Shown here: in pieces, positions 5,801 to 26,843 of the stretch | How the letters are laid out: every line of letters begins with the position of its first letter | Numbering within the stretch: the first letter of the stretch is position 1 | Assembly: GCA_029964075.1 (NCBI GenBank) | Contig: CM057146.1 | Location: forward strand, 6,157,501-6,221,500 | Direction of reading: 5' to 3' | Length of the DNA: 64,000 nt | Origin: Patiria pectinifera | Taxonomy: Eukaryota > Echinodermata > Asteroidea > Valvatida > Asterinidae | The notes under the pieces: generated by a model | What the model was told of the DNA's origin: nothing | What the model saw: the letters and a program-made list of their open reading frames with translations, nothing else | Databases searched by the model: none | Program-made: the position numbers and the translations under genes

Positions 5801-8800
5801 GAAGGTCAGATGCTTCTAATAGCTTTACTAATGTCCAATAAGCACTTTAAGAAGCTTTTGTGGTCATCAACTAGTAGGTAACTACCCAGAACTATCAAAT
5901 AAATAGAGCCTCCTCTTTTTAAGGCACAAATCGTATAAGCTTTTCAATATGGCTATTTTAGCCAATTTTTCAATAAATCTCATCCTCCTCTCTTTGAAGA
6001 AAAAAACCCCTGACTATCAAGCAGTGTTTTTTTTTTTTACCTGGCCTAAGGAAAACTAAGTAAAGTTTTTCGTTTATAATCCTACTCACCTGCCAAACTG
6101 TGGACAGTGGTCCAAGTAACCAGCGACAACCTGCCATAAGCTGTGGAGACATGGTACAAGTATTCAGCTGTATTCCAAACTCAATTTTAACTAGAAAGCA
6201 CTCAGAGAGCGCAAACAATTTCCCAACATATTGTCAGTACATCCAAAAGAAATACTTGCATTAGACCCGAAACGCAATAACGACGCCACGTTCCAGCCTC
6301 ATATTAAAACACTCAAAAATGTATGATGTGTACGAGCACAACTTTTGATTTTCTGAGGTCACGCACGGTATGCTGGTGCTCTGAGTCATACGTGCGAAAT
6401 GGCAGGAGGCCTCCGGTACAGGATATATTTTGAGTGTTTTTACGCAACTGTGGAACATGACATTGTTACTGACGCCACGTTTACAGGTCCATACTCGCAG
6501 AAAAGGTGACGAATCCTTAAACAAAAATCCTGGATCCAGACCCAGATCTGGATCACTTCCAAAATCTAAACAATTTGTACTTACACCAAGGACCACCCCT
6601 TAAAAGTTGTTCATGCAAATATGTCCATAACTTTTTGAGTTATCTTGTTGACGGACAAATCGACAGACAAACAAACAAACAAACAAACAAACCAACGCAG
6701 ATGAAAACTTAAATGAAAATGTAAGAAAATCAAGAATATATGTTGGATGCAGATAATCAATTGTCAGGATGTGTCTTGCTAAGAAACATATGTCATATTT
6801 GTAAGTTGATTGATATGAGAAATAAATACATAAATAAGCCTTCTCAGCGGACTTCGAATAATTCACAGTAAAGGAAAATGCATAGCTGAGTAAAGTCTTC
6901 ATATAAACACAATACAGTAGTTACTACATGAAAATTACGTATGTGAGAGTTGATACCCCGGAAAATGATGCATTCACAGTTTGCACATGAACCTGAAACC
7001 TCATATTTGGATTCCATCAAAAAAGCTGTGACTTTTGTTGAAACTTTGACCCTGGAGAGGATTTGCACACATTTGTGATGCGATCAAGCTACATGAGTAA
7101 TTTGTCGGGAACTTTTATTTGGAGATACAGGCCAAAATAGGGCCACTTCATCACATCACTTCATCACATCTCTTGGTGTTCCAACGTCCATAATTTTTTA
7201 ACTCAAGATGGTACCAGCATGCGGTTTTCACAGCAGTAATGCTGAGATTGTGCTCTTTTCCAATCTGTAAAAAGAAAAATTGACCAGGGTCGACTCATTT
7301 AGCTTGATCACATCACATTTATGCACAAAGACTGACCTGTCATGAGACATGAGGGTGGAGGCATACTCAAGAAGAAGGAACTCTCTCAAGTTGGAGCCAA
7401 AACTAAAGAACAACAATAAAAAAACCAGGAGTTAAGATTAGCTTATACTCAGGTTTCAGGTTTCAGGTTTATTTCCATACTATAAGGTAATTAAGTTGAA
7501 TAATATACATCAGGTAAACATTTTAACGAAACTTTGAAATAATAGTATGGGGAGGTCAGACAAGAAGCCGAAGCTTGTACTAGGTCTGCCCCCTTCACAA
7601 AGAATACATGTAGTTACACAATGCATGAATAATCATAGGATATATCAATAATATGTTACTACATTAAATTCATTAAATTACTCGAGTTCAGCTTGGTACG
7701 GAAACACTTTCAGACGGAAACACTTTCAGACAGAAACTGTTGGGCACCAGGTTAGCTGGTTTGATACAGAATAAGCTGCCTTGATTGGACAAAATGAAAA
7801 CAATGCACACTCGACGTTGAGCCAATTATAAGCTCGTTGTCTCAAACAGGTGTAAATACCAGCCAAAATATTGGTTTGCCATAATCAATGAAACAATCAA
7901 ACGTGGAGTATTTTTCTAAGGCAGACACTTAATGTCCTCTTACTTGAGTTGATGGGAGTCCAGCTTGCCACAGTGATGCAACAAGTCAGCCAGATGGGCC
8001 ACGAACCACCAATTACTCATGGTGGCGCTGTGCATTAAGATAAAAGAAAACAAAAATAAATTTAAGATTTCAAATATACAGAAGAAAAATGAGTAAGCAT
8101 GCATGTATTCAAAGCTTTCATTACCTTACTCAAACATACTAAGCTTGCATTTGCCTGTACAAATGAAGAATTTATGTTTTTCGTGGGGACTTAGACTTTT
8201 AAATAGGGCTCTGTTTTGAAAGAGGTCTACATGACAAAAACAATACAGACAAAATCAGTGGAGAACCGATCCCTCACATCTGATCTGAAATTTTATGGAA
8301 ACATGAAGAGGAATATCTTTGGAAATCAGGATAACATTTGAAAAAATATATTGTCACAGTAAATTTGACAAAATTTCAAGAAAATTTTAAGGACTTTGTC
8401 ATTCATTTAGTAAAAAAATATATTTATCCCACATTTTGGGGTGGCACAAGTCACAAAGGCACCTTAATGTCTTATACTATCTTGCCCTTAAAGGAAATAA
8501 AAACAAGCTGGGCACAATTTCATGGCTTTGCTAAACACAGAATTCCGTGCTTACGATACCGCGCTAGCAGAAAAATTCTGTGCTAATCCTATAAGCAAAG
8601 AAGCCAAAATTCCTCGCTAACCCGTGAATTAGCTTACCGTAAGCACAGAATTTTCTGCTACAGCAAGCAGGGATTTTTCGCTAACGGTAAGCAGAGCCAT
8701 GAAAAATGGGCCCAGAAAAAAAACAGGTGACAAACGGATGTGTACTGGTAATGAAAGTGTGTTTTGTACCTGCTTGCTTTGATGACTTGATGGACGTCAA

Positions 8801-11121
8801 ACTCAAAGGCTGCCATCAAGATGTTGTCTAATGCACTCATCCTAGAGGAACCACCAAACTCATCAATACACGCCTAGTGACAAAATAAGAAAAACTCATC
8901 AGACTCACTATAACAGCCATTGTTATTTCAGTTGAGAAAAACACTCTCAATCTAAGGAAAAAATTTAGAATGCCAGGAAATCTAAAAATTAAAAATTATT
9001 ATCATTCCATATCAAAGAGACAAAAATCATGAATATATGACTTAAATCTTTGAATCTAGCCATGGGCTTTGGACAATTAATTGGACACTTTGCGTTTGAA
9101 ATCTGTAATATTGTGGCTCGGATATATAAGCTGTACGTGGAATAATAGACTCTTTTTTGCTACAACTTGCATTCAAACACAGGACCATGAAGTGTTTTTA
9201 CATGGTCTTTTTACCCTTTTTTCTCAAAAATACCAAAATTTTGTTTGCCAATAATTGTTTTATCATGTTCAAGGCCTACCAAAAAGAGGTCTGGTTTGGA
9301 GGCAGTATTGGCCAATGATCTTCTTTTGCGAATAATGGGCCATTTAAGTTATCAAACCCATAGATGCACAACCCTGTAAAATTAGGCCTTTGAACAGCAC
9401 AATGGCCAGATCTGAATTAATAACAAATGTGCCTATGGCAGCGTCTGAATCCTCACAGACATGTGTTTTGCTGCCAATCACAGCACAATACTCTGGAACT
9501 AGTCTACAAATAGCATGGTAGCAGACTGATAGTTTATAGACTACCTTGGCGTGGTACTGCAGGTCTAGTGCCCTGACTGTCGGGTTGGAGTACAGCAGCT
9601 TGGTGACCAGCATCTGATACCAGCTGCCCAGCATGTCACTGAGCTCTGAAAAGACTGACTGGTCCCCTGACAGGATCTAAACAAGGACCAACCAAAGAGA
9701 ACATCATGGAGATAAATATTACATCACAAAATAGTCACCATGTCTGCACGTCAAAAAAGGGATATTGATTTGCCTCGATGGTCAGTTCAAACCAACAGCT
9801 ATGGAAATTCCAGAACTTGCTGGCATACTTAAATTTTTGTCTTGTCAGGTAGACACAGACTTAGAACAATGGCAGCCTGCATATAAATTTTCCCTCCTAC
9901 TCCAGTATCCAGCACCAGCGAAAGAGGTTGTAGTCCTAGGCCTCACAAGTCAATTATAATTCTTATATTATCTTAAAAATCAATCAAATTTGAAACACCA
10001 ATGAAGTATATCTGAAAAGAGCATCTTCTTCCACCCATCTAAAAAAAAGAATTACTGAAATTGATCTATGCTATCAGGAGTTATGAACGTTTTACTAAAA
10101 GAACCAATTTTTATAGCTGTCCATGGAATGCCATTAGAACCTATTGAGCTGAATGAGTATTACAGATTACAACTAGAGCTAATGTGCTTCCCGAAGCACG
10201 GATATCAGCCTAAATTGCCATTTTATCGGTTTGTCTGAACACTGACCACACGGTGATCATTGCTAAATGTGGCTGAGATTGGCAAAAGAATGTAATAGAA
10301 ACATTTATGAACATTTGACATTAAGCCCACCGAAACATTACATACATTAGCCGTCAAGACAATACATGAAACAGTAGTTAATGCCAGTAGATTAATCCAC
10401 ATAAACTCTCAAAATTTAATCGCAGCAGTAGTGTTATTTATTGGCCTCCGTACTTTTTAATCCACGGCAGAGTATCTGGCTGAACACATGTCTTTACACA
10501 GGTGGCACTGCTGCATGCTATGACAGACCGAAGGAATGCAGTAACAAGACACCACTTCTGCGGTTTGGGCAAAGTCTGTGGAGAGTGTGGCACTGTATGT
10601 CACACAACATCCACAGTATCGTGGTGGTTTGAAACCTTCCCAGAATTCCTATGTTTTTATATTGCTTTTTACATGCGTTTGAAAAATAAAAAACTTGAAA
10701 TAACTTGACAACCAAATAAGTCAGGAATATGAAATTTGAGAATTACAGATAAAAAAATACACTGAACAGGGCTGCAAAGATTTAAAATGTAAAACAGCTT
10801 TTTAATTGTTTTCATAAAATGACCCCTACTGACCAATAGGTGACCACTGGCCAAATTCTGTGAACAAGTTTTGTGAGGCTTGGTATAAAGATACAACTGA
10901 CCAAGTTTGACATCAATTGGGTTAAGACTGTGGGAGAAGAAGCATTTTGTAAATATTCATTAAATGACCTCTAGTGCCCCTTTAATGACCAGTGGCCGGA
11001 TTTTACAAACATGGCTAGGTAGGGCATGTGACAAGGTTTAATTTGGCCAAGTTTGTTTGAAATCGGCCAAATAGTTTAGGAGTTATGGCCATTTTTATAT
11101 TGGTCACGTGACCGTTTGCCC

Positions 11122-11218
<97 letters not shown>

Positions 11219-14200
11219 AACTGGACGATCACAGTATATCAGCGTGCTGCGCACGGCTGATATAAGTCCACGTTTCATTGTACTCTATAGGCATTCATCC
11301 ATTCATGAAAGGGTAACTGATCAGTGGTGGACAGCTGAGTTTTGTGATCTTTTTCATTGAAATTGACATAACTTGGAAATAGAGTATGTAAATTACGTGA
11401 AATGTTCACAGTTAAAATTCACTAAGATGTACTTTATCCCTGTTTTTTGTGTGTGTGAAACTGAGCAAGCCAAATATTCAAAAACATTTTTCAAATTGGG
11501 TAACTTTCTTTTTGACTCACCCAGTACAATGAGACAAATTGAGTAAGTCAACTATTTCAAACACATTTTTCAAATTGGGTAACTTTCTTTTTGACTCGCC
11601 CTGCACAATGAGGGTGCTTTTCTGACCTATGAACCCATCAGATGTAAAACATTGAAGTTTTAAATTTGATGCAAGCAAGTGAATTTTAAGGATTCTGAGT
11701 ACAGAGCATACCCTGCATATCGTGTGCAGATGATGATATGAGATGAACGCATTGTCCTCCAGACACTGCGCGCACTGGTCCTGCCAATGGCGCCACCGTA
11801 GGTCAAACTCGGCCAGGGACTGCCGGCTCAGGGCGCTGAAAACGGGCATGTCTCGCATCAGCTTGTCCATGCGAGCAAAGGTCTGCAGAGACAACGAGCG
11901 ACATAAGAATAAAGAAATGGGTTACTCGGCCAACGACATTTGAGCCAGTGTGCACATCACGATTTGGTTATTTTTGACAGCAGATGAATGTACCCAGGTG
12001 TATTATGACAATGATAACTGAATCTCCAATAATTCATTCAAAAGTTTGATGATAACGAACACTGTAAAAATGAATTTAAATGGCGCTTAAGGACTTGATT
12101 TTGGTTGAGCACAAAGAATGTGGTGTTACGTTAGTCCAAATGCTGATTTTTTTAGGACTAAGAAAATATCCTGGCAAAAATGGACCAATCCAGTAAGCCC
12201 CGCCCACTGCGCACTGGGCAAATAAACACGTGCCCCTCTCGAATGCCAAACTGCATTTTCCTGCCGCGCGCAACAAACGCGCGTGCACGCATGTCAGACG
12301 ATGGTGCACGCACGTCGGACATAAATCACTGCTGTGATTGGTCAGAATACCATGGGGCGGTGCTTACTGGATCGGTCCATTACCAGAGGAGTCATGGGCA
12401 GCCCTATCTTTTTAACGTTTTTTTTTAATAGAATTGATAAGATTACACCTGCCACTATAGCAATGCTCATTAGGGTTCGATGCCCCTGAAAGGTATATTA
12501 ATCCTAACCCCTTGAGCACTTTTACTAGAAAGTATCCTGAATCCGCCAAAATCCACCTATTGTCTCATGCACAAAAACTTTGATGTTGACGACTGCTCAG
12601 TATCGAGGTATCCTAAATCCATCAAAATCCTGCAGTACCACTAGGCTTACAATCCTGAATCCATCAAAACCCCTGTTTTCAATACGGCGGTATCCTGAAT
12701 CCATCAAAATCCTGCAGTACCGTTAGGCTTACAATCCTGAATCCATCAAAACCCCCTGTTTTCAATATGGAGGTATCCTGAATCTGCCCAAATACTCCAA
12801 AACAGGGGTATGGATTTTGATGGATTCAGGTATGTTAGGGTTAAAGTACAAGGATTTGCGCCACCAGGCTTCCTGTGAAGTGGTGGATGTTGAAGAATTT
12901 GTTGAAGAATTTGAAACGCTCCTAGTATTTTTGGCTTGTGTAGTGGCCCCAGAGAAACAAAGATTAATTCGGTCTTCTTAGCCACGAATGATGGGAAATA
13001 TAAAACAACTTGTGGTTGGGTCAATTTGGCTGTAATACGATTACTACTTAGGTCTAGAGAAGTGATAGAGCATCAGACTTTACATTGAGAGTGTCTTGTT
13101 CTTGCTGTGCGTGCATGGAGAGAAGATGTCTAGCTTCGGCCAATCTGCCTTGCATCACATAGATGTAGATCTGTAGTCAAGATATTGAAAAAAAACCCAC
13201 GTTTGCCAAATCTGACAATTAGACAAAACATTTTACACAAAAAAAAAGCAAAATGCATTTATGACTCAGGCAGGCCTGGCACTCTAGATTTCAAGTGGTA
13301 AACACTGTTATTTGTCTGTAAAGACGAAAAGTATTCGTATACATTCATAATGATTAAAGTTTACTTGCATTTGAAAATGTACGAGTGGGTCTGTTTGAAA
13401 AAAATTGGCCACAGAAACTGGCCCAAAATGTTTAGGAAAAAGAAAATATTTCATTTTTAGTTGATTCACGAACTTCCATGTCATTTAAAAGCCGGTAAAT
13501 ACTGAGCGGAGAAAACGTGAAACCAAACTTGTGACGTCACGTCAAGTTTTTACTGCGAATTCACACAAGTTGAACACCTTTCACCTCTGGTGAGCTTCCC
13601 AGCGAATGTTTCATGATGTGAAATTCACTTTTAATTTGCATTCGCTGGAAGTATGAATCGTCCTACAGACAAGCAATGGGTTTGGCCGATTTTTAAACAC
13701 TTTTTTTGGTAGTTAAAGCCATCTTTGTCAATAAGTAAGTCCAAGAAAGGGTTCCCTTTTAGTCCCATACATAACGTCATGATTTCTTTAATTACATAAT
13801 CATCACAAAGGCTAACACCATAAACAATCTTGTGGGTATTCTCCTTGCAAATGCCCAATGGTAGAATAACAAACACTGAAATCCATGAATATCTTAGAGG
13901 GTTCAACTTTTGTTACCTATGGGACATAGAGTCCGCGAATTCTTGGGCTTGCCCCAATGAGGGATCTTTCAGGCAAATTTTGATCATATTTTGCAAGTTG
14001 CTCTCTGCATACTCACAGCTTTCCAGTACACCTCATTGAACTGGAAGTCCTCTGACTGCAACACCTCCCTGGCCAGGCGATCGCCTTCTGTGAAGTGAAG
14101 CTTCAGCCAGTCTTGAAGCTGCTGCAAGACCACGCCACCTGGTCATATTACCAAGGAAAACAACGACTATCAAATACCAAGTTGCCACTGGGGACAAAAA

Positions 14201-17200
14201 ACAAAATTCACTAGTTGGCCAGACAGGGATACAAACCCAAGTCAAAGAGATGAAAGTCAAGTATAGAACCAGTGCTCCAACCTGACTCCCTTGTTATAAT
14301 AAATCTTGGTATTTAAACTTGGCCTTACCAGGCAGCGTTTCCACAAAGAGGATCTCACAGAGGCTCCAGATGAGACCCATGGTCTGCAGCAACTCGCTCT
14401 GAGCTGTGTAGCTCTCGCATTCCTCACGAGACACATTGGGATCTGCGATGAGAACATCGTAAATAATCAGTCCGCAAGTCAGGATTCGAACCCCGGACAC
14501 TCATTACAAAGACAGTGTCCAATTACACAGCAATGTTGTATTTGAGCTCACCGCAAGTCCTCACAATCGCATTATAAGTCACTCTATAGTCATGAGCTAT
14601 TCAAATGAACCGAGACAAAAGGATGCCTTTTTTAATTGTTCATCCACTGTTACTTATGATGGACTTAACTATAACACTATTTACCCTAACCTCCTTCAAC
14701 TCTCCAAAGTCCTCCGGGCTGTTTTGAAGTATTTTGGAGGATTGAGGCTGAATGCAACATATGATGTGGAGGATTGGGGGCACATGGACATTCAGTATCG
14801 GTCGATTTTGGAGGATTGAGGCTGAATGGTGTTTGAAGAAGAGGAGGATTTTGGAGGTTTGAGGCTGAATGTATCTTGAGAGGCAGGGCTATTGGAGGAT
14901 AATGAAGGATTGAGGCAGTGGGTATCCTTCATTGGACATAACTGCACAATTTTTTAGGATTTTATAGGATTGAGGATGGTTCCTAGCAAAAAGGGCTTAG
15001 GGGTAAGGGTTAAACAGTGTCAGCTATGGCGAAATGTCCAGAATATTGTCATGCCAAGTTCACAATATCTCTTATTGAAAAGTAATGCATCAAGTAAATT
15101 TGATGTTGCTTTTCATCGACGTAATTTCATAAACACTGTAAAGTCTGCGTTGTCTGAGAGCCTGTGAGAAAAACTTTGCAAGTTTGCTTGCGTGGGACTC
15201 GAACCCATGACCAAAACTCCATCATACTAGTGCACTATGCTGTAAAATGTATTAACGCTAACCGAACTAAACCCATCTAAGTCCAATCAGCAGGTGTTGT
15301 TGAAGTCTGTTTGAATGGGTACAGTACCCCTAAACTGATGGTCTTCTACATTGGGTTTGGCATACCTCCAGAAACTAAGTCCAACAGTGTGTGTGTACGA
15401 TTTCCCATATGGTGTTGGAATTTGCCTGGATGGGTATGGTTCCTAGTAAGTTATGCTAGGGAGTTAGGGTTAAAAGTGATCGCCTTACCGGCTGCGGCTT
15501 TGCGCAAGTCCTGCACGCATTCACCCATGAAGGCTCGGTAATGTCGACTGTACTTGACGAGTCTGTAGAAAACGAAATGAGGTTTGAGAACTCTTATGTC
15601 TTTATATCCACACAAAGACAATCCCAAAACAGCAATTACACAAAAGTAACAAACAAATTCCTTGATAACTTTCCTTGATAACCGTCGTTAGCTGAAGGTC
15701 TAAGTAGCATATGTGACCCGCTCCACAAAAAAGGGTATTAAGTCGCGCTGTGCATTATCGTGTAATGGCCCGCTCAACGTTGAGAGGGTTAACAAAAATT
15801 TCAAGATATGATTTTCATTTTTTGGTCACGAATGACATCTTTAATACCTAAAGTTTCAGGGTTCATTCACAGAAATGTTGATTTCGATAAATTAAGTGGG
15901 GAAAAAATGACAGGAAGTCGTTAATATGCAAATATGTCATTTCTCCAGAACGGGACGGGCTATGGATGTTAATGAACCCAGTTTTGTCCTTAGGACGGGA
16001 CGTAAAGCCCTAGGTCCTGTGTGTTGTGTAACCCAGTAACCTTATAAAGGTGCTACGTAATGGGTCTCATATTTCTCATAAAACTTCATTTACCTGTCTT
16101 TAAAAATAGACATAATTACCAGCGCCTTGAGTACCTAATTGTTGGTAGATACGTGCGCTATATAAGACTCCGGTATTATTATTATTATTATTATTATTAT
16201 GTAGCTCTATTATATACTAAATGAAAGCTTATGTTATGGGCTTTCCAACCATGTATATTTAACTCTTTTTTGGGGGTGACATAATACCCTTTCTTTTGTG
16301 GAGCGGGTCACATGTATACTGTAACTCCAAAAAAAATTGTGACCTTGATAAGAACTAGCAAAACCTAAGCTATAATGATGAAAAAATAACAACAACAAAA
16401 AGCCAAAACAAACTCCCCAAAAAATAAAAACAAAACTTACTGCGGTTTTCTGACAGAATCTGATGACTCTGGACCATGCTTCTGTAGTGCCACAAACACA
16501 TCTATGATCAAACACAAAGTAATTAGTCTCAACCACAGAAGAACAATATATACTTTTCCCCTTATTTATCACAGTTGGAAGAAATTTAATTTCTGAGCCA
16601 ACCAACTTATTTCTTTAACCCTCCTATACATGTACTTGGAACTATCGCAAATTGTCAAAAAAAAAACCTCACCCCTACCTCTCTCGGGGAGTGTGGTCCG
16701 GTAAGTGGTTAGGGTTAATTAGTATGGTTAATTAGTAGATTAGTAGTATGAAAAGAGTAGACATAGATAAATCAGATGCATCAGATGATATTAGGAGATA
16801 CATGTACTTTCAGAGCATACCATAATTCAGCTACGTAAAGAATTTGGGTCAATTCAAATGGCTATGACCCTGTTAACATTTGAACATACCATGTGATTGG
16901 GTGACCAGTTTTCTTGCTATGGGTTTGTGCATGTCTGTCTGCCATTGGACCCAATGCAATCTGGGAGGGCTCTGCAATATGGGTGCTTCATACCCTAGAA
17001 AGAAAATAAAAGAAAATATTCAATTCTTCCTGAAGTATGAATTCCTTCGTCCAAGGTTGAATCCGAAATGGTTCTATTGATTTTAAAACCCAGAAATTAG
17101 CAAACTTGAAGATTTAAGAAACTGGAAGTTTATGTTGATTAAATGTGATGTTCCAATGTTCAAACGTCCAATGTTATCTGATTGTTTATTAATTGCAATG

Positions 17201-19457
17201 ATTTTTTTTGTTTTCTGGAAAGCACAATTTCCATATATTCAAAATTCTTCAACCAATATTTTACGAGAATCGGAACATAATGTGAACATACAGGAACCAC
17301 ACAGAAATTGGCGCAGTATGCAAAGTGCAACTCCGGTTTTGTTTAAGTGACCATGACCAACACAATACATTTCAAAGGATGTTCGGGACCACTGCAAAAA
17401 AACCTCGTTCTAAATGACTATGAGATGATTTCATATTAGAATACCAAAACATTTAACACAACTAAAACCATGCCTTGGAATTGTATGCAAGCAATGATAC
17501 TTGCAATTGCCACCGACCTTTGCCCTGTGTGTGTTCATATATCCTCTTGCCAATGCCAGCGTGCAGGAGAAGTTTGTGGCCCAGACCCCAGACCGAAGAG
17601 AGGCAGTTTGTGGCGGCGTCTGCGTCAGGAATGGCCTGCGATACACAATGGTAGATTAAATTAAAATTATGAACCCAAAGAAAAATCCAAAGCAAAGGGT
17701 TTATATTTACTTCAATAAACCCGAACCCCTTGGGAAAATTTACTAGAAAGGATCCTGAATCTGCCAAAATCCATCAATTTTGTCATGCAAAAACTTTTTG
17801 GTGTCCAGTGAGTCCATCAGAATCCACACGTTAGCTGGGAGTACATCTGTTGAGATCCTGAATCCATCAAAGTCCCCCAACTGCTCAATATGTAGGTATC
17901 AGAATCCATCAAAATCCTGCAGTTCCGCTAAGCTTACAATCCTGAATCCATCAAAATCCCCCAGTTTGTGCAATATGAAGGTATCCAGAATCCGCCGAAA
18001 TCCCCCGAAACAGGGGTGTGGATTTTGATGGATTCAAGTACGTTAGGGTTAATAAATTTATCGAATCAGAAGGTAACAGTACTAACACCTCAAATTCTAT
18101 TTAACAGAATAATTCAAGATTATGACAAGGGTTGTACTAGCCCGACTGCGTCTGGCCGTACAGTACTATCGCAAGCTCTGTAGTACGGCCAGACGCCCGA
18201 TGCTTCCACAGAGACTGAATTTTGTTGGCCGCCGATGTAGCGATTTTGCTAGATCTTTCGATCGCGATTATCTTTTCATCCAGGACACAAATTTCCAAAG
18301 TTAAGGTTCGTAGTCGTAGAGCAACTCATACCTTTTCGAAAAAACGTTCTTTGGTCTCAATATTTTCATCCATCTGGCCACAAGACGAATTTCAGTCATC
18401 AGATTCCACAAATATCATCCCCCATGCGATCCCCCATGCGATTTCAAAATGGCGGCCACAGTGAAATGTATGCAATATGCAGGCGCGCCCACGCAAACTC
18501 ATGAATATGCATAACAGTCCGTGACGGATGACCTCGTGTTTTTGGACGTGCGTCATACGTCACAGACTCTTTATGCATATTCATGAGTTTGCGTGGGCGC
18601 GCCGGCCTATTGCATACATTACAGCGCGGCCGCCATTTTGAAATCGCATGGGGGATCGCATGGGGGACGATATTTGTGGAATCTGATGACTGAAATTCGT
18701 CTTGTGGCCAGATGGATGAAAATATTGAGACCAAAGAACGTTTTTTCGAAAAGGTATGAGTTGCTCTACGACTACGAACCTTAACTTTGGAAATTTGTGT
18801 CCTGGATGAAAAGATAATCGCGATCGAAAGATCTAGCAAAATCGCTACATCGGCGGCCAACAAAATTCAGTCTCTGTGGAAGCATCGGGCGTCTGGCCGT
18901 ACTACAGAGCTTGCGATAGTACTGTACGGCCAGACGCAGTCGGGCTAGGGTTGTACATGAGTCAATCACACGTCACGCCCCCCCCTCGCCCCCCCCCCCT
19001 CACCCTGGCAATTTTGAAAATTATTTTCACTCGTCATGCTCGTGCAGTCATGGCAGTCGAGTCGCGGCCACCACTTTTTCGCGGAACGTACAAATTAATC
19101 CACTGCATCTATTAATATATTTTGATTTTGTATACAACCAAATTGAAGCATAACAACTATTTTTTTTGTAACAAATAAAGAAAATGGAAAACTGCATGTT
19201 GGGGAACATGTCGGAAATACACCACTTTCTGCAGCATCGAATGCAGACGATGATACGCACAGCCACAGCGATCGAGAAAAATTAAAATGTCTCAACAATT
19301 TCCCCCGTAAAAAAATCCCGTCATATACAAAAATGTACTTATATGTAATGTTACGCCATATCATATGAAACAATGCGTCAAAACGTTTTAAAAGAACTAT
19401 AAATTAACGTTTTATTCTACAAACCAAAAGTGGAATTTCGCGCTCGTAGGCCGCCAT
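2842..19457 (-). CDS. NUP85: Nuclear pore complex protein Nup85, complete, 19 coding exons
   Basis: Scaffold nucleoporin of the Y (Nup107-160) complex. Exons in coding order: 19425-19457, 17518-17635, 16890-16994, 16441-16501, 15489-15562, 14329-14442, 14017-14138, 13084-13170, 11712-11882, 9545-9676, 8770-8873, 7944-8027, 7337-7402, 6090-6140, 5442-5542, 4597-4815, 4063-4162, 3755-3920, 2842-2940. They total 2007 nt, 668 codons plus stop (human 656), with every phase matching. Diagnostic blocks are [79 protein letters not shown] and [20 protein letters not shown], which belong to the helical ACE1-type fold; the C-terminus reads [14 protein letters not shown]. Exon 1 ([11 protein letters not shown]) is the weakest call: its donor GTTTGT is non-ideal, but phase, length and the AAGATGGCGGC start context fit. 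Introns hold many MITEs listed separately. Confidence 0.95.
3029..3724. mobile_element. TA-flanked foldback element filling the last NUP85 intron
   Basis: Terminal inverted repeats begin TAGGGTGAGTAAA at the left and end TTTATTCGCCCTG at the right, flanked by TA at 3027-3028 and 3725-3726, as in mariner/Tc1-type insertions. Complementary arms continue inward (3040-3125 against 3600-3710, then 3340-3460 against 3475-3600) and meet near 3465, with a 3160-3320 insert carrying a repeated AATACAAGGTAC motif on one side only. It occupies 696 of the 814 bp of the intron. It has no coding capacity. Confidence 0.75.
5055..5200 (+). repeat. Diverged dispersed repeat, copy 1
   Basis: Shares order and blocks with 54373-54518: GATGCCTGATG, then AAAATAA/AAAATTAG, GTGCGTACTTCG/TGCGTACCGGTACTTCG, and GGAGCT...AGTGGTAAAAA. 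Gaps are few, so the same frame stays open in both copies. Lies in a NUP85 intron. Confidence 0.4.
5679..6046. mobile_element. GGCC-ended Harbinger-like MITE (GGCCAGGTAAAA subtype)
   Basis: Left end GGCCAGGTAAAAAAAAA is mirrored by TTTTTTTTTACCTGGCC at the right end. Flanking triplets are TAT and TAA, an imperfect TWA-type duplication. Interior is AT-rich and non-coding. A 58-bp relative lies at 41848-41905. Inserted in a NUP85 intron, 43 bp from the exon at 6090. Confidence 0.55.
7075..7316. mobile_element. MITE with perfect 4-bp target duplication, copy 1
   Basis: Inverted termini GTGATGCGATCAAGCTACAT and its near-complement at 7290-7316, flanked by ATTT on both sides (7071-7074, 7317-7320). 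The interior matches 62647-62872 in reverse complement (landmark GAGCACAATCTCAGCATTAC). It lies 14 bp beyond the 5' splice site of the NUP85 exon 7337-7402. Superfamily unassigned; 4-bp duplications occur in Chapaev- and Sola-type elements among others. Confidence 0.7.
7447..7640 (-). mobile_element. Retroposon 3' end (LINE or SINE tail)
   Basis: Read on the minus strand, a GTATGGAAATAAA stretch runs into a tail of CTGAAAC repeats (CAGGTTT units on plus, 7450-7470). This resembles the 3' end of a non-LTR retroelement with a short-repeat tail. No coding sequence is left; 5' boundary uncertain. Confidence 0.4.
8510..8712. mobile_element. Foldback MITE of the GGGCCCAATTTCATGGC family, copy 1
   Basis: Left end GGGCACAATTTCATGGCTTT pairs with AGAGCCATGAAAAATGGGCCC at the right. 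Interior repeats of GCTAGC/GCTTAC and CAGAATTTTCTGC give it a largely palindromic structure. A second copy is at 46162-46405 and a degenerate third ends near 52755. Located in a NUP85 intron. Confidence 0.65.
10817..11010. repeat. Degenerate two-unit repeat
   Basis: AAATGACCCCTACTGACC at 10817 recurs as AAATGACCTCTAGTGCCC near 10962, each followed by a GACCACTGGCC-like motif and GTTTG/ACAAG blocks, a period of roughly 145 bp. Non-coding, in a NUP85 intron. Confidence 0.4.
11123..11220 (+). repeat. (GAAA)n microsatellite
   Basis: About 98 bp of uninterrupted AAGA/GAAA tetranucleotide repeat in a NUP85 intron. It creates an artificial minus-strand ORF of FFLS repeats. Confidence 0.95.
12181..12379. 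mobile_element. GC-rich MITE
   Basis: Termini TGGACCAATCCAGTAAGC and GCTTACTGGATCGGTCCA are inverted repeats that continue through a CCCCGCCC/GGGGCGG block. The interior is unusually rich in GCGCGC and CACGCA. About 199 bp, non-coding, between NUP85 exons at 11712 and 13084. A CCAAT and a GC-box lie in each terminus. Confidence 0.6.
12499..12844. mobile_element. piggyBac-like MITE with iterated motif, copy R1
   Basis: Starts TTAATCCTAACCCC and ends GTTAGGGTTAA: TTAA at each edge with CCCTAAC-type inverted termini. The interior repeats an about 20-bp motif close to CCTGAATCCATCAAAATCC some five or six times; the right end carries the motif in reverse (GGATTTTGATGGATTCAGG). Non-coding, in a NUP85 intron. 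Confidence 0.65.
14476..14520 (-). repeat. tRNA-like B-box fragment
   Basis: The minus strand contains GGGGTTCGAATCCTG, a good RNA polymerase III B box, but no cloverleaf can be drawn around it. It is taken as a SINE remnant abutting a NUP85 exon (14329-14442). Confidence 0.35.
14681..15013. mobile_element. piggyBac-like MITE with iterated motif, copy R5
   Basis: Left end TTTACCCTAACCTCC, right end GGGTAAGGGTTAA. The interior iterates GGAGGATTGAGGCTGAATG four or more times, the reverse-oriented version of the motif in the copies at 32673 and 43384. Near the right end GGTTCCTAGCAAAAAGGGC matches the sub-terminal sequence of other copies. Confidence 0.6.
15170..15230 (-). repeat. tRNA-derived SINE fragment
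   Basis: Minus strand carries GGGTTCGAGTCCCACGCAAG, a B box with flanking sequence shared with 25680-25745 and 43225-43330. Head and body are too diverged to delimit. Confidence 0.4.
15249..15472. mobile_element. piggyBac-like MITE, copy R7 (diverged)
   Basis: Begins ATTAACGCTAACC and ends GGGAGTTAGGGTTAA, with the sub-terminal GGTTCCTAGTAAG shared with copy R5. The internal iterated motif is largely lost. Confidence 0.5.
15712..16312. mobile_element. MITE with a nested retroposon tail
   Basis: Outer inverted termini TGTGACCCGCTCCACAAAA and TTTTGTGGAGCGGGTCACA delimit about 600 bp. Inside, roughly 15980-16200 reads as a different element: GGACGGGACGTAAAGCC, then GCGCTATATAAGACTCCGG and a (TTA)n run at 16174-16200, typical of a SINE 3' end. 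The outer element resumes after the TTA run. Located between NUP85 exons at 15489 and 16441. Confidence 0.65.
16615..16717. mobile_element. Short piggyBac-like MITE derivative, copy R8
   Basis: TTAACCCTCCTATACATG at the left and GTGGTTAGGGTTAA at the right, about 103 bp, TTAA at both edges. No iterated motif inside. Read as an internally deleted family member. Confidence 0.45.
17716..18052. mobile_element. piggyBac-like MITE with iterated motif, copy R2
   Basis: Left end AATAAACCCGAACCCCTTGG, right end CGTTAGGGTTAA. Interior iterates CCTGAATCCATCAAAATCC, the same variant as R1 at 12499-12844, with the reversed motif at the right end. Located in NUP85 intron 1, 85 bp from the foldback at 18138. 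Confidence 0.65.
18138..18947. mobile_element. 810-bp Mutator-like foldback element with nested hairpin tips
   Basis: Two arms of about 395 bp (18138-18532 and 18552-18947) are near-perfect reverse complements around a loop of about 19 nt. Perfect 9-bp direct repeats GGGTTGTAC flank it (18129-18137 and 18948-18956), matching the 9-bp target duplication of Mutator-like elements. Each tip contains its own hairpin: in the left arm GCGTCTGGCCGTAC (18148-18161) pairs with GTACGGCCAGACGC (18183-18196). Both arms carry a near-identical open frame, which is a by-product of arm identity. Each arm includes a YY1-type AAAATGGCGGCC. It sits in NUP85 intron 1, about 0.5 kb from the NUP85/ERCC1 promoter. 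The high arm identity suggests recent insertion or arm conversion. Confidence 0.85.
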
Positions 19458-19652: not shown

Positions 19653-22600
19653 ATGGGTGACAAACTGAACGAGGAAGATGGAAAGCAACAGGAAAAGAGA
19701 CTTTTCACCATACCCAGTGCAAAAGATATCGCCAGGTTAGAGCATGGGAAATCAAAGGTAGGCCCTCAACCTATTTTGGGGGGTCAAAATGTAGCTGACA
19801 CGGTCACACGGTACCGCCAGCTAGCACCCGTTTTCAGGTTTTGATAACACGGCACAGTGCACACACAAAATGTGATGTAGAGGGTGTGACTTGGGGGAGG
19901 GGGGGGGGGTGGTTCCGGGCGCAAGCATATTAGAGATTTGGTAGCCTCTAAACCTATAAGAAGTATACCAATCTGAAGCTGAGATTCTAATTGTGTGATT
20001 CAATGCTTAAAATATCAATTTGAACAACATCTAATTGATATAAAATTTATCATTTCAATTTCTGTTTCACATCAAAATCATCTTTTCGGGCTTTGCGAGG
20101 TCACACCCATATGGCATGCACCGTGGCAATACTCGGCTAATATCTTCATCAATCACAGCTCTGAAGTTCCTTCTTTCTCATTATCATTTCTAATAAGCAT
20201 TCTTATTGGCCGATTTTCTAATATTTGTGAGCTCGAAAAGAGACCCTTTTTAAGCCTAGTTAATACCATTGTTTACATTGTATTTAAAATGCATTATTTC
20301 TTATGATTTTTCAACAAGACATGCAAAATAAAACAATTTGAAGATGATATATAGTAAAGAAACAAAAAGAACGATAAAAAATGGAAGTCAAGCCTCTGTC
20401 CTTTAATTAACACAAACAAATTTAATCATCACAATTTGATGTTTATTGATTGATTTTCCATCATACGGATATCGACCAGTATTGCGGTAACTTGAATTGC
20501 ATTAGTCACGGCTTTGTCTGGAGGCTTGTGTTTAAATATTGACAACCTCAGTCATTGTATTTCATCTTTCATTTTGTTTTTTTTCTGTTGTGACATTCAG
20601 GTGAAGTCGTACTTCAAAAGCCAGTTTGGAAAGAAACCCACCACTGCGCAGCCCAAGGACCAAGCAACCTCCAGCAATCGAACCAATGCAAGTTCCAGCT
20701 CCACATCAACACTAAGAAATCCGCCGAATTCCAAAGTAGCATCCACTTCATCGGACAGTAGAATCCCTAATGTTACCAGCACAGGAGCAGTTGAAAGAAC
20801 CGGTAAAACTGTTGGTGATGCTGGCACTAATGGAAGGACTAGTGGCCTGTCTACTGCAGGTGACCCAAAGGTCAGCACCTCATCTGCATATCCTGGTACA
20901 GAACCGAGTACCTGCGGTATGCCCGACGGGGCCGGGGTTGGAACGAAAAGGAAAATAGGGTCGACATTCGCTGACAAGTTTTCTGCATTGAGGGAAGGAG
21001 CGGACTACGAGGAGCCGCAGCTGAAGAGGTTAGTACCAGGGTTCAATTTCATGAACCTGCTAAATGCAGGAATTTGCTAAGAACAGGTAACAATTGCTTA
21101 GCAAAGACTGGGTACCAGCCAAAATGCCATGTGTTTGAAATTGCGTGTGGCTGGTTTTATGCGGACTCCTGCTTACCACATAATTTGGCTAAGCAGTATT
21201 ACCAGACTGGGACCTTGAATGCAGAAAAACATGCCAAACAAAATCAGACCAACTTTACTCACTCTTTATTTGGAAAGATTCCCATATCTGGCCATCACTA
21301 ATTTTTCCCTTGAGTGACCTATCAGCCATCAGAAAGTGATAATACGTTGTAAAAAGTCAAATTTAGCAGGGAAAATATTGAAGTATTTACTGAGAAAACA
21401 CTTAAAAACTTTCAGACCCGTCTCAAACGATTTGTACACATGGTGAAAGTGATGGCCAGATATGGGAATATTTCCCTTTATTTTTAGCCAACAAAGTTCT
21501 CCACAATTTTCACGGGGCAAAGACGAGGTCCTCATTATTTCAAGACTTTTGGCATGTTCTTGGGAACTATGCCAAATTTTGTGGGTCGAATCTAGTGACC
21601 TCACTTTTGCTTTTGACCTCAACGAATGAACTGTACTGATGAGGATTGATGCAATCATATGTTTACTGCCTTGAATCCAGTCTAACCATTCAACTAATAA
21701 AAAGTTGTCTTAATTGTTTGTTTTTTCTTCCAAAAAATAAATGCAGAGCAGCAGTCTCGACTGCAGTAGTTGCAGCACCCATCGTGACAAGCGCTAAGGC
21801 ACCGTCGGGAGCAAATACCATCGTCGTCAACACAAGACAGGTAGGTGTCATCAGGTGCACCAAGAAGTGACAAATACCATTCTTTTGACATGCCACAGAG
21901 TGAGAGATCATCAGTAGACATTTTACACACGGTACATCACTTTGTGGTGCAGCAGCTATCTCAGACTGGGACCTTTAAGTGCTCAAAACGATGCAAAAGA
22001 AGATCAGGCCAACTTTACTCACTCTTTAGCCAGCAAATTTCTCCAAAACTTTTATTGGGCAAAGAAAAGGTCCTCAGTATTTCAGGACTTTCGGCATGTT
22101 CTTGAAAACTATGCCAAATTTTTCAATCGTGGTCAATTCAATTTTTAAAGGAGACTTTTCTACAATATTTGGCAGTGGCTTGCACATGAGAAGGAAGTCA
22201 AGTGATTTCAAAATGAGGCTAAAGACTAGACTTGTACATGTCTATCCATGGTCCATGTTTGAAAAGACTGACTTTTTCATTCATTGTCATTAGTCTGGTG
22301 CCTGACTATGGAGAAATGTGTAGAAATAGTGACCTAGTACCCGACATCCTAGATATTTTTGTGGCACAGTCACTTGACAGTTGATTGATGCAGCACTGAA
22401 GAGTTGTTGGACTGGTTGTTTCAGATGCCAGTCTATTTTCTTGTATTGCATGTTTTCAACACCTTAAGTTTTGGGACTCTCATACACAGTATTGAGAGTC
22501 CCAAAATTTTGGACTACAGTTATCCATGATACCACGCGTCATGGTGCGAGTGACAATGTGGATAGACCTGCAAGAAACTTTGTGATTGACCTCTCTTTTT

Positions 22601-25600
22601 GTGTGTTTGCTAAGTATTTTGCTAAGTGCTAAACCTCACAAGTCCTCTCGATGGTGATGGCTCTACTGTACCTTCTTAATTATTCATATTCATATTCATA
22701 TTTTTGTATTCGTCATGCAAGTTAAAAACAGACATGAAATTCTTGTCCTGGTGTAAAATCATAGAGTAAAAGCAATAAAAACAGCAATCAACATTTAAGC
22801 TTTTTCCCTATAACTCTTGTTGGTTTTGGAGAATCCAAGAGGATTAAGGTTAAAGGATTAATCGTCAAGAACCTAGTACTAGTTTCAAACTTATTCATAT
22901 GAGGAGACACTTTTTGTGAGGAATTATTTAGCTTTTATGTTCGTTGACTTGATTGGGAAGTATTGCGTGTGATATTTTGCTGTTTTGTTCCTGTCCGTCG
23001 GTCTAAACCAAGAACAGTGGTGACAATGACTCCACTATCACTAATTCTGAATCAGAGTTGATTTCTTTGTCATTGTTTTCCAGAAAGGGAATCCCATTCT
23101 TAAGCACATCCGAAATATCCCTTGGGAGTTTGGGGACATCGTCCCCGACTATGTCATGGGAAGGACTGCCTGTGCACTGTATTTAAGGTAAGAATGGTTG
23201 ACTTAATGTAGCCTTTGGCATATACAGTCCTTCTGATTTGGAAATCACAGGCGTGTGGAAAAAGGCACACCTGGATTTTTCTAGGCGTTAGGCGTGTGAT
23301 TCTGTGGTCCAAGCGAGAACTGAACAATCTGGTGTACATGTATGTCTTTATAATATTCATCTTGGTTTATGGTAAAGACATTTTCTCTTCATCAACATAC
23401 ATTTTTTTCACAAATTATGCATAATTATGCTGTAAATGTATGACGAGGTGTGTGGTAAGAGGGATTCAGGCGTGTGATTATTCGCACTTTTCAGGAAGCT
23501 TTTAGGCGTGTGATGGCGTGGGGGTGCGATCACACGCCTCAAATCAGGAGGACTGCATATAGTACAATTTCAGTGATATGTGGGACTCGTGGAAAGTGTG
23601 TTTTTTAGAGTCCCAAAATTTATATTCTGTTGCCATCAAACTGCTGTTACAAAAAGTTGGACGTGCGTACTTTTCTGCACATTGGTTGGATTAGTTTTGT
23701 TTGTTCAAGTTTTCACTTAAAAAAATATGGGCTCAAATTACACTTAACTATGTGTGCATTTTGTGCATTGTGGATGCTTCTAGGGACTTGAAAATCATAC
23801 CTGTTTTTAACTTCGATTCAAAATTTTCTTTTCCTCTCGGTAGCTTGAGGTATCACCACCTGAACCCAAACTACATCCACGACAGACTGAAGGACCTCGG
23901 TCACCAGTACGAACTCAGGGTGCTGCTTGTACAGGTCGATGTGGTGAGTTGCGAGACGTGGTGTGTTGTAGTCCATCACAAGGCCTGTCGTAGCTGATGA
24001 ATCACCAGTCAATTTACTAGTCAAGTCACAAATTAAAGTAATTTTTTTCAAATTTCTCTGTGGTCTGTCAATTCTAGAAAGATCCTCACCACTCTGTGAA
24101 GGAATTGGCTCGCATGGCCTTACTGGCGGATTGCACTCTTATACTTGCATGGAGGTAACTTCACTCAGTTCTCACTTTATTTTTAATACACAATTAACAT
24201 TTTTACCTGGTTTTTAAAAATTATTTTATGCATGTATGGAAGTTGTGGCGCAATAACAGTGTCATGTTCTGTGTATTAAAATTCATGCCGGGGGCCCACA
24301 AAATCTAGAATAAAGAATGGCCAATTAAAGAAAATACAGTTTTGAAAATAGTCCGATAACTCTTGTTTACATGTGCATGTATGTTCTTGACTGTAGTGCT
24401 GAGGAGGCAGGCCGATACTTAGAAACCTACAAGTCATATGAGAACAAGTCTGCAGATGCTCTGAAGGAAAAGATAGAAACGGATTATCTGTCAAAGGTAA
24501 GGTCAGAAAAAAGTTATACTTGCACTTAACAAGACCCTTGCTCTCTGAGTTGTACCATGTTTTTGCTAAGCAAGTTTGACTACTAGGCAGAAATCAGCAG
24601 GGAACCAGTAACAGCAACATACAATCACCAGATATTTTGGCTGGTACCCGAATGTACTAAGCAAATCTTTTTGTGCTCAGCTAATATGCATGAGTGGCAG
24701 CTATGAGTCCCCCACTCATGAGCTTTCACAGTGTTTGTAATATCATGGCTCTGAAGGGGAAACCTATATGTATTCTATTAACCATAACTCTCACAGATCC
24801 TTTCAAAGTTCACCGCAAGATTTTTCTAAGATTTTGTAAGATTGAGGAAGGTACAGCCCAGTCACTGTTACTTCACTCATTACTCTCTGTACTGCCTCAC
24901 AGCCCCCTGCTTGTTACTCCTTATACCACCCCAGGACTCTATGGTATTATGAATGCATCAAGGATTGATCACAGTGTAGTACAATGTAATACATGTGCTA
25001 ATGGGAACGGGTCCATGATATCCCTTGAAAGTTGCAGTACTACGACTGTGCCTTTGGTTTCATGATAAGTGGAGGAGTTTCGAGGATTCAGAAAGATTTC
25101 TTGCAAATACGTGGGATGTTAAAGTGAGTACCTTGCTATCACTTGTTCGTCTTCCTCTACAATTATTACCTAGGTGACAGATGTTCTAAGCACAGTCAGA
25201 TCAGTTAACAAGACAGATGTTGTCACTCTGGTCTCAACATTTGGGGTGAGTCTTTATGTGCAGATACAGAATAGGCAAACTACACTATCAGCAGCCGTAT
25301 ATTGGTTGGCAGAGTGTGTACAATAGAGAAGGATTTGTGCGAGAAATATGTGTAAGAGATCAAGTTAGTTTTGAATGATGATTTTTTTTTTTCGCGGCCA
25401 CGGCAACCTATTACTATTTATAAGATGGAATTGTTACGCAATCAAGCGATGGAATTGTTACGCAATCAAGCATGCATTGCGCAGTGTTGAAAATGTTCCA
25501 AACACACGCTTTGTTGCTCGAAATGTGTTCAGTATACGACGCAGCCGATGCGCCTTATGCAAGTTGACGCTCAAAATGCCAATGCACGTGGATGGTCTGT

Positions 25601-26843
25601 AGGAAATGACGCCATTTGAAAGAGACCTGGGTTTTGCCTTCACCAACATAAACATGGCTCATTCACTCAGTGGTGTCTGAGATCTTTCCAAGAAAAATTT
25701 CACAAGCTTTCTTCGGTGGGACTCGAACCCACCACCTCCTGCTAAGTTAATTTTATTGACATTTTTTTCCAGACATTTGACAAGATCCTTGCAGCATCGA
25801 AGGAGGACCTGTACCTGTGCCCTGGATTTGGACCGCAGAAAGTAAGGAAGGTTTTGGAGGAAGTTTTATTTATTTTGGAATAAAGATTTGACGTGGTTGG
25901 TCTTTGATTAATTTGTTTCATTTAATAAGTCTTCAAGACAGTTCTGGCCCTGTGAAGATCCTGCAAAAGTGTTGTAGTCAAGTGCCTCATAAGTCAAGTC
26001 ACTACGTACATGTATTCAGATTAACTGTGATAAAGACAATCTTTAGTTATTGTTCATCCGGTGTTAATTGTGACTTGTAAAATGGTCACATTGCGGCAGC
26101 AACAAATTATTTACAAATGTAAAGGGTCCATGAAGAGACTTTTTCTTAGGAACACATTTTGTGCAACTTCTTACTCCTCTTAAATGTGTGGAACTATTTG
26201 ACATACCTTTTTGGTTAATTGTATTGAAAAGTGCACTTCTTTAGACAATTAATACTGTCCATGCTTTTCCAGACGAGGGTGCTGTTGCTGTGATGTCATT
26301 TCAGGAAGACACTGTTCAGTTTATAGGTTTTCTGTTCAAATTATGAATCCAAAAATTTGCTCAATGAAAACATTTGTGAGAAAAGTTTGCTCATTGGCTT
26401 ACTGCCATGTACTGACACAACAAAGAAAATAAAATCTACAACAGCAAAGTATCCAAACTTCTGGCACTTTTTGGTACGAAAATAGCTGGAACATTTGGGT
26501 TTCTCTGAAGTGACATCACAATTTTGCTCGTATATACGAAATTCGCATTGGCATCAAAATAAAAAAAGGAACCAAAATACCCTTGAAAATGGCAAAATGA
26601 AAATTGAAAATAGCGTTACATGGGACGCAAGGTGCGTTTTCAAGGATTGCATTAAAAAAAAATGCATTACACGGGCCCTGTGGCTAACAATTCATCGCTT
26701 TCTGTTTCTAGGCACAGCGGTTGTACGATGTGCTTCACGAGCCCTTTTTGAAGACGACCAGGATTGAACGGAAGACTGCCACCAAAGATACTGCAGCCGC
26801 TACAACACAAGCTGAAGTGCCGGCAACATCAGAACCAGATTGA
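19653..26843 (+). CDS. ERCC1: DNA excision repair protein ERCC1, complete, 10 coding exons
   Basis: Non-catalytic partner of the XPF nuclease in nucleotide excision and crosslink repair. Exons: 19653-19757, 20601-21028, 21747-21840, 23084-23187, 23844-23943, 24078-24154, 24397-24496, 25174-25245, 25773-25841, 26712-26843; 426 aa against 297 in human. Residues 1-200 are a low-complexity Ser/Thr linker, most of it in one exon. The central nuclease-like domain starts [18 protein letters not shown] at residue 210; by comparison with human, the XPA-contact residues Asn110, Ser142, Tyr145 and Tyr152 are kept (here N212, S244, Y247, Y254). The tandem helix-hairpin-helix domain ends [19 protein letters not shown], followed by PFLK with the Phe that anchors XPF. 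A 29-residue tail beyond that point is absent in human ERCC1. The start is supported by [10 protein letters not shown], which resembles the human N-terminus. Confidence 0.96.
21930..22524 (+). repeat. Dispersed long repeat, copy 1
   Basis: About 590 bp colinear with 33985-34539 (landmarks TTAGCCAGCAAATTTCTCC, CACATGAGA, TAGTCTGGTG). It ends in a palindrome, GGGACTCTCATACACAGTAT then TGAGAGTCCC. Parts of the same sequence, rearranged, occupy 21190-21640, including an inverted pair around CCCATATCTGGCCATCACT. Non-coding, in ERCC1 intron 3. Confidence 0.6.
23219..23563. mobile_element. MITE with iterated GGCGTGTGATT motif
   Basis: Inverted termini CATATACAGTCCTTCTGATT and AATCAGGAGGACTGCATATAG. 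Inside, AGGCGTGTG recurs about four times and appears in reverse (CACACGCC) next to the right end. Begins 31 bp after ERCC1 exon 4. Confidence 0.55.
25680..25745 (-). repeat. tRNA-derived SINE fragment
   Basis: Minus strand reads GGTGGGTTCGAGTCCCACC, a B-box stem-loop as in a tRNA T arm, followed by GAAGAAAGC. Related to 15170-15230 and 43225-43330. Lies just upstream of ERCC1 exon 9. Confidence 0.4.

What the first reader, a model, noticed from the sequence alone, without database searches (positions are those of the whole stretch)
18129..18956. Young Mutator-like foldback with nested hairpin tips beside a bidirectional promoter
Two arms of about 395 bp are almost perfectly complementary, the 9-bp duplications are perfect, and each arm tip folds into its own 14-bp-stem hairpin, so the whole element is a palindrome within a palindrome. 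As part of NUP85 intron 1 it would put a long double-stranded hairpin in every pre-mRNA, a possible substrate for ADAR or small-RNA pathways. Each arm also brings a YY1-type site to within 1.2 kb of the NUP85/ERCC1 promoter. Structure is seen directly; superfamily and effects are inferred.
Basis: partly seen in the sequence, partly recalled or inferred. Interest (0 to 1): 0.75.

Follow-up and report, generated by a model that had tools for sequence, protein, structure and literature searches.

The report
Young foldback transposon family, 9-bp duplications
A nearly perfect 810-base DNA palindrome beside two housekeeping genes is one copy of a young family of jumping DNA elements spread over this animal's genome; the element type is known, but the smallest copies, about 90 bases and almost pure hairpin, are unusual.

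Summary
Element 18138-18947 (810 bp) has arms identical over their outer 279 bp and perfect 9-bp duplications (GGGTTGTAC). It is a real insertion: the tip occurs at 739 places in the window's genome (reversed control 0); of 115 facing tip pairs, 94 carry 9-bp duplications with at most one mismatch (83 exact); four copies inside dispersed repeats have an empty site with one copy of the 9-mer.

The family has size classes: 26 pairs of 76-98 bp (10 of 12 small copies read are 89-100% palindromic, with about 10 different centres), roughly 800-bp foldbacks like this one, and longer copies. In 8 of 11 long copies read, the extra DNA looks inserted by other elements. A 13.2-kb copy with a transposase-like gene first looked like the autonomous partner, but the gene is Chapaev-type (DUF1280) and seems to have its own CAC...GTG-like ends.

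In the copies read I found no transposase of the family's own. "Mutator-like" therefore rests on the 9-bp duplication, long arms and MULE transposases elsewhere in the genome: plausible, unproven. The neighbours are NUP85 (minus strand) and ERCC1 (plus), but NUP85's first exons were not found, so "intron 1" is unproven. Small-RNA, editing and YY1 effects were not testable.

The parts
18129..18137 (.). left 9-bp target site duplication GGGTTGTAC
   Evidence: 9 bp is the usual length in the family and empty sites carry one copy
18138..18532 (+). left arm of the foldback (395 bp by BLAST)
18138..18196 (+). left tip: 10 bp, then 14-bp stem (18148-18161 / 18183-18196) with 21-nt loop; its first ~44 bp are the arm of the ~90-bp palindromic members
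18446..18457 (+). AAAATGGCGGCC, YY1-like motif in the left arm (motif name recalled)
   Evidence: exact AAAATGGCGGC in both arms of 22 of 27 copies
18533..18551 (.). centre between the arms as aligned by BLAST (partly paired in the fold)
18552..18947 (-). right arm, inverted copy of the left arm
18948..18956 (.). right 9-bp target site duplication GGGTTGTAC
3812..14485 (-). NUP85 coding exons (residues about 109-608); 5' exons not located
19653..26753 (+). ERCC1 (putative ATG 19653 by reading; residues 107-295 by alignment)

Best explanation
This is one copy of a young, high-copy family of non-autonomous cut-and-paste DNA transposons with foldback structure. A transposase encoded elsewhere in the genome is proposed to bind the 24-44 bp tip, excise the element and insert it by a staggered 9-nt cut at a palindromic target (roughly RYWN-G-N7-C-NWRY); repair makes the 9-bp duplication. 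The nested tip hairpin is probably a shortened remnant of the family's basic palindrome: the smallest members are two ~44-bp tips back to back. The transposase is most likely of the Mutator (MULE) superfamily. Shown: mobility in the past, mostly 9-bp duplications, empty sites, size classes, no MULE gene in the copies read. Inferred: cut-and-paste, action in trans, MULE identity, origin of the tip hairpin. For the host the default reading is a passive passenger next to the NUP85/ERCC1 divergent pair.
For: 739 tip sites, control 0. 94 of 115 facing tip pairs with at most 1 mismatch in the 9-mers, 83 exact; shifting by one base gives 6.0 mismatches of 8 on average; none of the 83 extends to 10 bp. 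Palindromic target consensus over 48 distinct sites, from 49 read pairs that had been selected for at most 1 mismatch, 47 of them exact. Empty sites with a single 9-mer for L013, L035, L036 and L042. Young: median arm distance 2% between and within 27 copies; the window copy has 1 mismatch in 300. MULE transposases are present: 30 PF10551 matches, three with open stretches of 605-644 aa, two of which were scanned and show MULE plus a sub-cut-off PHD finger; one such element (C19) has a 9-bp duplication read by eye, while its C4 relative's is imperfect. The literature ties 8-11 bp duplications and long TIRs to MULEs (PMC6446971, passages) and most foldbacks to Mutator (PMC4079207, passages).
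Against: No member with its own MULE gene was found. The one MULE-type family whose ends were read (C4/C19) has unrelated ends, and the arm has no match longer than 15 bp to any of 10 MULE loci. A 9-bp duplication alone does not fix a superfamily, and 21 of 115 facing pairs do not show it (some are surely mispaired neighbours). Only 40 of 611 arm candidates were scored and only 390 of 470 exact tips were listed; 7 of 18 pairs above 1.1 kb were not read; so an autonomous copy could have been missed.
Confidence: 0.72

Rival explanations
1. The family is moved by a Chapaev/RAG1-related (DUF1280) transposase carried in its own 13.2-kb autonomous member on C10.
For: The 13,230-bp copy has both tips and a matched duplication CATCAGCAG and contains open pieces of a gene, one matching DUF1280 at E 1.2e-13. 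Homology with a second copy on C7 runs to 5 bp into the tip.
Against: DUF1280 corresponds to the Chapaev transposase (PMC3985635, passages) and Chapaev elements make 3-4 bp duplications with CAC/GTG ends (PMC4079192, passages). The gene unit has such ends by eye: CACGTAC on the left in C10 and GTACGTG on the right in C7, where a dispersed repeat starts at the next base. It sits inside one tip of a foldback with both arms. None of the other 77 DUF1280 matches lies inside the family's duplication-matched pairs above 1.1 kb (compared by eye). In C10 the right GTG is not intact and no clean duplication is seen, so the nesting is inferred.
Confidence: 0.07
2. Another superfamily with 8-9 bp duplications (Merlin, P or an unclassified '9-bp' family) moves it.
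For: The duplication length overlaps (recalled), and no MULE was tied to these tips.
Against: Not tested directly; no searches for Merlin or P transposases were made. Long foldback arms with such duplications are most often MULE in print (PMC4079207 passages).
Confidence: 0.18
3. A long inverted repeat made by local duplication or assembly error, not a transposon.
For: None beyond the long near-identical arms.
Against: Hundreds of dispersed tips, pairs with many different duplications, and empty sites.
Confidence: 0.01
4. The copy is co-opted: a dsRNA-forming or YY1-binding regulator of NUP85/ERCC1.
For: It lies about 0.7 kb from the putative ERCC1 ATG; the motif AAAATGGCGGC is in both arms of 22 of 27 copies; very stable hairpin.
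Against: Motif conservation follows from family youth. No expression, small-RNA or editing data. The window copy is a typical family member. NUP85's first exons were not located.
Confidence: 0.04

Closest known systems
Tm1 of root-knot nematodes (PMC3169594, passages)
   Same: foldback-like composite TIRs, 9-bp duplications, MITE-like short members, mostly non-autonomous
   Different: Tm1 has one transposase-encoding (Phantom-like MULE) member; none was found here. Here the smallest members are almost pure palindromes of about 90 bp
Foldback FB4 of Drosophila (PMC8277862, passages)
   Same: long arms (~700 bp), 9-10 bp duplications, non-autonomous, transposase unknown
   Different: no sequence relation tested; here the arms carry a nested tip hairpin rather than tandem repeats (FB tandem repeats recalled)
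Tetris of Drosophila virilis (PMC4079207, passages)
   Same: foldback, 8-10 bp duplications, no transposase found, placed in Mutator on duplication size
   Different: Tetris has ~220-bp tandem repeats in the TIRs and few complete copies; this family has hundreds of tips and tiny palindromic members
TU foldback elements of sea urchin (recalled; only a citation of Lieberman et al. 1983 seen in PMC4079207)
   Same: echinoderm foldback with long inverted repeats
   Different: sequence not compared; details recalled only
Rehavkus-type MULE found in this genome (C4, C19)
   Same: 9-bp duplication at C19, PHD-finger-like plus MULE domain, so a possible source of transposase
   Different: its ends start GCTTTCGAGTCAACTCG / GTAACAGGTCATCTCG with short tandem repeats, unlike TAGCCCGACTGCG

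Membership tests
foldback transposon | long inverted arms making up most of the element, with a target site duplication | tested here: met
foldback transposon | dispersed mobile copies with empty sites | tested here: met
Mutator/MULE superfamily | 8-11 bp target site duplication | tested here: met
   9 bp in 94 of 115 facing pairs, at most 1 mismatch; one further pair has 10 bp, one 6 bp
Mutator/MULE superfamily | transposase with MULE DDE domain encoded by an autonomous relative with the same ends | tested here: inconclusive
   30 MULE matches in the genome; none tied to these tips. Long copies read: open stretches examined in all 11; Pfam run on 7 pieces of the C10 copy and 10 pieces of L058, L059, L060, L065, L066: DUF1280, one weak zf-AD and weaker sub-cut-off matches, one reverse transcriptase, no MULE; L023 and L082-L085 judged by length of open stretches only
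Mutator/MULE superfamily | terminal sequence shared with a MULE family | tested here: inconclusive
   arm against 10 MULE loci: no match longer than 15 bp; full ends known for one family only, unrelated
Chapaev (CMC) | 3-4 bp duplication, CAC...GTG ends | tested here: not met
   this family has mostly 9-bp duplications and TAG...CTA ends; criterion from PMC4079192
hAT | 8-bp duplication (recalled criterion) | tested here: not met
   9 bp in 94 of 115 pairs, at most 1 mismatch

The most novel reading that the evidence does not exclude
The tip palindrome is itself the functional unit. Elements of about 90 bp that are almost pure hairpin are mobile, and their centres are re-made again and again, by hairpin opening and rejoining during transposition or by later centre revision: the 12 small copies read show about 10 centre forms (L071, L072 and L074 share one, apart from point changes and orientation), although 9 of 12 match the window's arm over 41-51 bp on both sides. 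In the larger copies the same tip hairpin would extrude as a cruciform and attract other transposons: 7 of 11 hand-mapped nested inserts fall in the 59-bp tip.
Probability: 0.17. Interest if true: 0.6.

Novelty: new member of a known kind. Interest (0 to 1): 0.38.

Why it matters
It adds a well-documented young foldback family to an animal genome (probably a starfish), with empty sites, a palindromic target and a size series down to about 90 bp. That series could show how foldback arms and nested tip hairpins arise. If the tiny palindromes are still mobile, they would be handy minimal substrates for finding the responsible transposase. The window copy, about 0.7 kb from the putative ERCC1 start, is a natural test of whether a long hairpin near a divergent promoter has any effect.

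Tried and rejected
1. Autonomous partner in long copies. Read: L058 (4155 bp), L059 (4057), L060 (2663), L065 (6695), L066 (4032), L023 (1970), L082 (2372), L083 (2201), L084 (1787), L085 (1234) and the C10 copy (13,230 bp): 11 of the 18 pairs longer than 1.1 kb. Two of those 18 pairs are double counts: the 10,164-bp pair joins two duplicated small copies, and two C12 pairs share a right tip. No MULE gene was seen in the 11: Pfam on 7 pieces of the C10 copy and 10 pieces of five others (reverse transcriptase in L066, 2.6e-24; nothing in the other 9), open-stretch lengths only for L023 and L082-L085. The 7 not read stay open.

2. DUF1280 gene as partner: first favoured, then given up after the end analysis. 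A direct-capture (Pack-element) reading was also considered. In 8 of the 11 long copies (L023, L058, L060, L065, L082, L084, L085, C10) the arm pieces on the two sides of an insert overlap by about 7-15 bp (BLAST coordinates), as a target duplication would leave; one of three L065 inserts and the L059 insert show at most 2 bp. L060 has an 8-bp duplication and CAGTGTTG...CAACACTG ends (hAT-like by recall). Capture stays possible for L066 and L059; L083 could not be placed.

3. Rehavkus-type MULE as partner by shared ends: not met.

4. Insertion hotspot count (7 of 11 in arm 1-60 of 405, one-sided binomial 3e-4): positions read by hand, chosen after seeing the data. L066 and L083 were left out because their break points could not be placed. 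L065 and L084 share position 180-190 and may be one event. Treat as a lead only.

5. Empty allele of the window copy: joined flanks match only the filled site in two halves, apart from short matches of a 5' repeat piece (40 of 120 candidates scored).

6. Searches in print: sea urchin/TU foldbacks (1 paper), palindromic MITE with 9-bp duplication (2 papers), sea star/MULE/foldback (10 of 18 listed); none describes this family in what I saw (listings, plus passages as cited). Repbase was not available.

7. On checking, 'all 12 centres differ' was corrected to about 10 forms of 12, and the probability of the novel case lowered from 0.20 to 0.17.
Full report
WHAT IS THERE. The window contains, at 18138-18947, an 810-bp element between two copies of GGGTTGTAC (18129-18137, 18948-18956). 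Its halves are inverted copies: no mismatch in the first 279 bp, 389 of 407 aligned columns identical overall. The predicted fold is a single hairpin of -761.8 kcal/mol against -235.9 for 20 shuffles. Each arm tip holds its own hairpin: positions 11-24 are the exact reverse complement of 46-59. Other matches to the arm within the window are 21 bp or shorter, or lie in the element itself.

THE FAMILY. The window lies in a 613.5-Mb genome (C18:6157501-6221500). One arm finds 611 candidates, of which 40 were scored, giving 73 matches at 72-100% identity. The 26-bp tip with up to 3 mismatches occurs 377+362 times; the reversed control 0. Four searches for the exact 20-bp tip with ten outer bases gave 90+119+128+133 = 470 sites, of which 390 were listed. 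Pairing those 390: 115 facing pairs within 30 kb, 94 with at most one mismatch in the 9-mers (83 exact), 21 with more. None of the 83 extends to 10 bp. Of the 21, one has an exact 10-bp duplication, one 6 bp, one (C14:42756084, L009) nine matching bases plus an extra base, and several are plainly pairs of different copies; others are true pairs without a duplication, so the rule has exceptions. Two of the 94 are double counts. Lengths of the 94: 26 of 76-98 bp, 4 of 134-173, 17 of 345-779, 29 of 796-852, 18 above 1.1 kb. Of 39 loci fetched around the best matches, 27 showed both tips; 25 of these have an exact 9-bp duplication, L034 has 1 mismatch, and L009 is the extra-base case. The other 12 showed no second tip in that script; a less strict script later found one more pair (L040).

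PROOF OF INSERTION. I joined the flanks of 34 fetched copies (26 distinct flank sequences) without the element and compared them with all sequence held. For L013, L035, L036 and L042 an uninterrupted relative carries exactly one copy of the 9-mer; one of these, for L042, lies in the window itself (42740-43099, 77% identity). L026 and L044 also have uninterrupted relatives but with changed 9-mers; L039 has one that was not inspected. L013 and L035 hit the same repeat five bases apart (flanks printed). Over 48 distinct sites the target is palindromic: C or T at -7 (88%), A or T at -6 (88%), G at the first TSD base (54%), with mirror images by construction (pairs selected for at most 1 mismatch). 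The window copy has no empty allele among the candidates scored.

AGE. In 27 copies of 600-900 bp the outer 300 bp of the two arms differ by a median of 2.0% within a copy, and copies differ by a median of 2.0% (range 0-12%); mismatches between arms rise from 0.7% in the outer 50 bp to 3.5% at 250-300. The window copy differs at 1 of 300, L010 and L034 at none. So the family is young and the window copy is among the least diverged, but arm identity could also reflect gene conversion.

SIZE SERIES AND THE NESTED HAIRPIN. Twelve small copies were read, all with exact 9-bp duplications (they were picked from matched pairs). Eleven are 83-98 bp; ten of these are 89-100% palindromic in place, while L078 is out of register (65%); the twelfth (L080, 153 bp) has a different palindromic centre. 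Nine of 12 match the window's arm over 41-51 bp on both sides. The 12 centre strings all differ, but L071, L072 and L074 are one form apart from point changes and orientation, so there are about 10 forms. The arm tip of the 800-bp form equals such a small palindrome cut short between GTAC motifs (inference). So the 'palindrome within a palindrome' is probably the remnant of the family's basic unit.

WHO MOVES IT. In the copies read I found no transposase gene that belongs to the family. The 13.2-kb copy on C10 (L067+L068) raised a different idea: it holds pieces of a gene, one of which matches DUF1280 at 1.2e-13. DUF1280 corresponds to the Chapaev transposase and groups with RAG1 (PMC3985635, passages); Chapaev has 3-4 bp duplications and CAC/GTG ends (PMC4079192, passages). 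A second copy of the gene unit on C7 (91-98% identical in pieces) ends in GTACGTG, and the next base starts a dispersed repeat (238 candidates, 40 scored). In C10 the unit starts CACGTAC inside the tip of a foldback. No foldback tip was found in 5.5 kb beyond the C7 end, and the region next to the left foldback in C10 is found only once. I conclude that the gene belongs to a nested Chapaev-type element; the right end in C10 lacks the last bases, so this is inference. A Gypsy-type LTR element is nested in the same copy (LTR pair 99.7% identical).

The genome does have MULE transposases: 30 PF10551 matches from 63 scored candidates. L048, L051 and L057 have 605-644-aa open stretches; L048 and L057 were scanned and match MULE, and PHD just below its cut-off, as in Rehavkus (PMC6446971 table). 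At C19 that element has a 9-bp duplication by eye, at C4 an imperfect one; their ends are unrelated to ours. MULE mobilisation is thus the most likely reading because of duplication size and architecture, not because of a matched partner.

HOST GENES. A window fragment at 11520-11921 (minus) matches NUP85 (3.9e-10; Pfam 1e-9) and 24329-24526 (plus) matches ERCC1 chains in the PDB (4.2e-11), though only 0.064 with Pfam's Rad10, below its cut-off. The ERCC1 start is read by eye at 19653, 706 bp from the element. NUP85's first 108 residues were not placed (one weak match at 16971-16882, E 0.016), so 'intron 1' is unproven. No RNA evidence was available.

VERDICT. Observation confirmed; family real, young and mobile in the recent past; superfamily plausible but unproven; host effects untested. 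New member of a known kind, with unusual ~90-bp palindromic members.

Noticed in passing
G000 C7 (44.85 Mb): 58 of 78 DUF1280 (Chapaev-type) matches lie on this one contig, 53 in its first 24 Mb and five near 42 Mb; C7 is about 7% of the genome. Why is unknown.
   Followed up: no
L023, L058, L059, L060, L065, L082, L084, L085, L067: Nested inserts of other elements in family copies; 7 of 11 hand-mapped inserts fall in the 59-bp tip hairpin (post hoc).
   Followed up: partly
L023:1973-3081: A 1.1-kb insert that is a 98.7% self-palindrome: a second, apparently young foldback family with roughly 9-10 bp duplication by eye.
   Followed up: no
L060 about 114-2287: hAT-like insert (CAGTGTTGTAG...CTACAACACTG, 8-bp duplication GTACTATC; label recalled) with GGTCTC repeats near its ends.
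   Followed up: no
C4:15.73 Mb and C19:21.58 Mb (L048, L051 and flanks): Two Rehavkus-like MULE elements with PHD-finger-like and MULE domains, long open frames and tandem repeats in the TIRs; 97.9-100% identical in the long aligned pieces (L051 itself was not scanned).
   Followed up: partly
tip lists: Groups of copies share the same outer 10-mer at distant places (ACATGTAGCT on C7 and C12; GGCCTATAGT on C8, C14, C17, C19; CACTGTGCAC three times on C102): likely carried along in larger duplications or other repeats.
   Followed up: no
window 3329-3608 and 48452-48692: Two older self-palindromes (76.6% and 78.0% self-match) unrelated to the element by BLAST.
   Followed up: no
window 53847-53919: tRNA-Ala (GGC) gene, found by both Rfam (as tRNA) and ARAGORN.
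   Followed up: no
window 30003-30710: Open frames made of short repeated peptide units in several frames, i.e. a tandem repeat read as ORFs.
   Followed up: no
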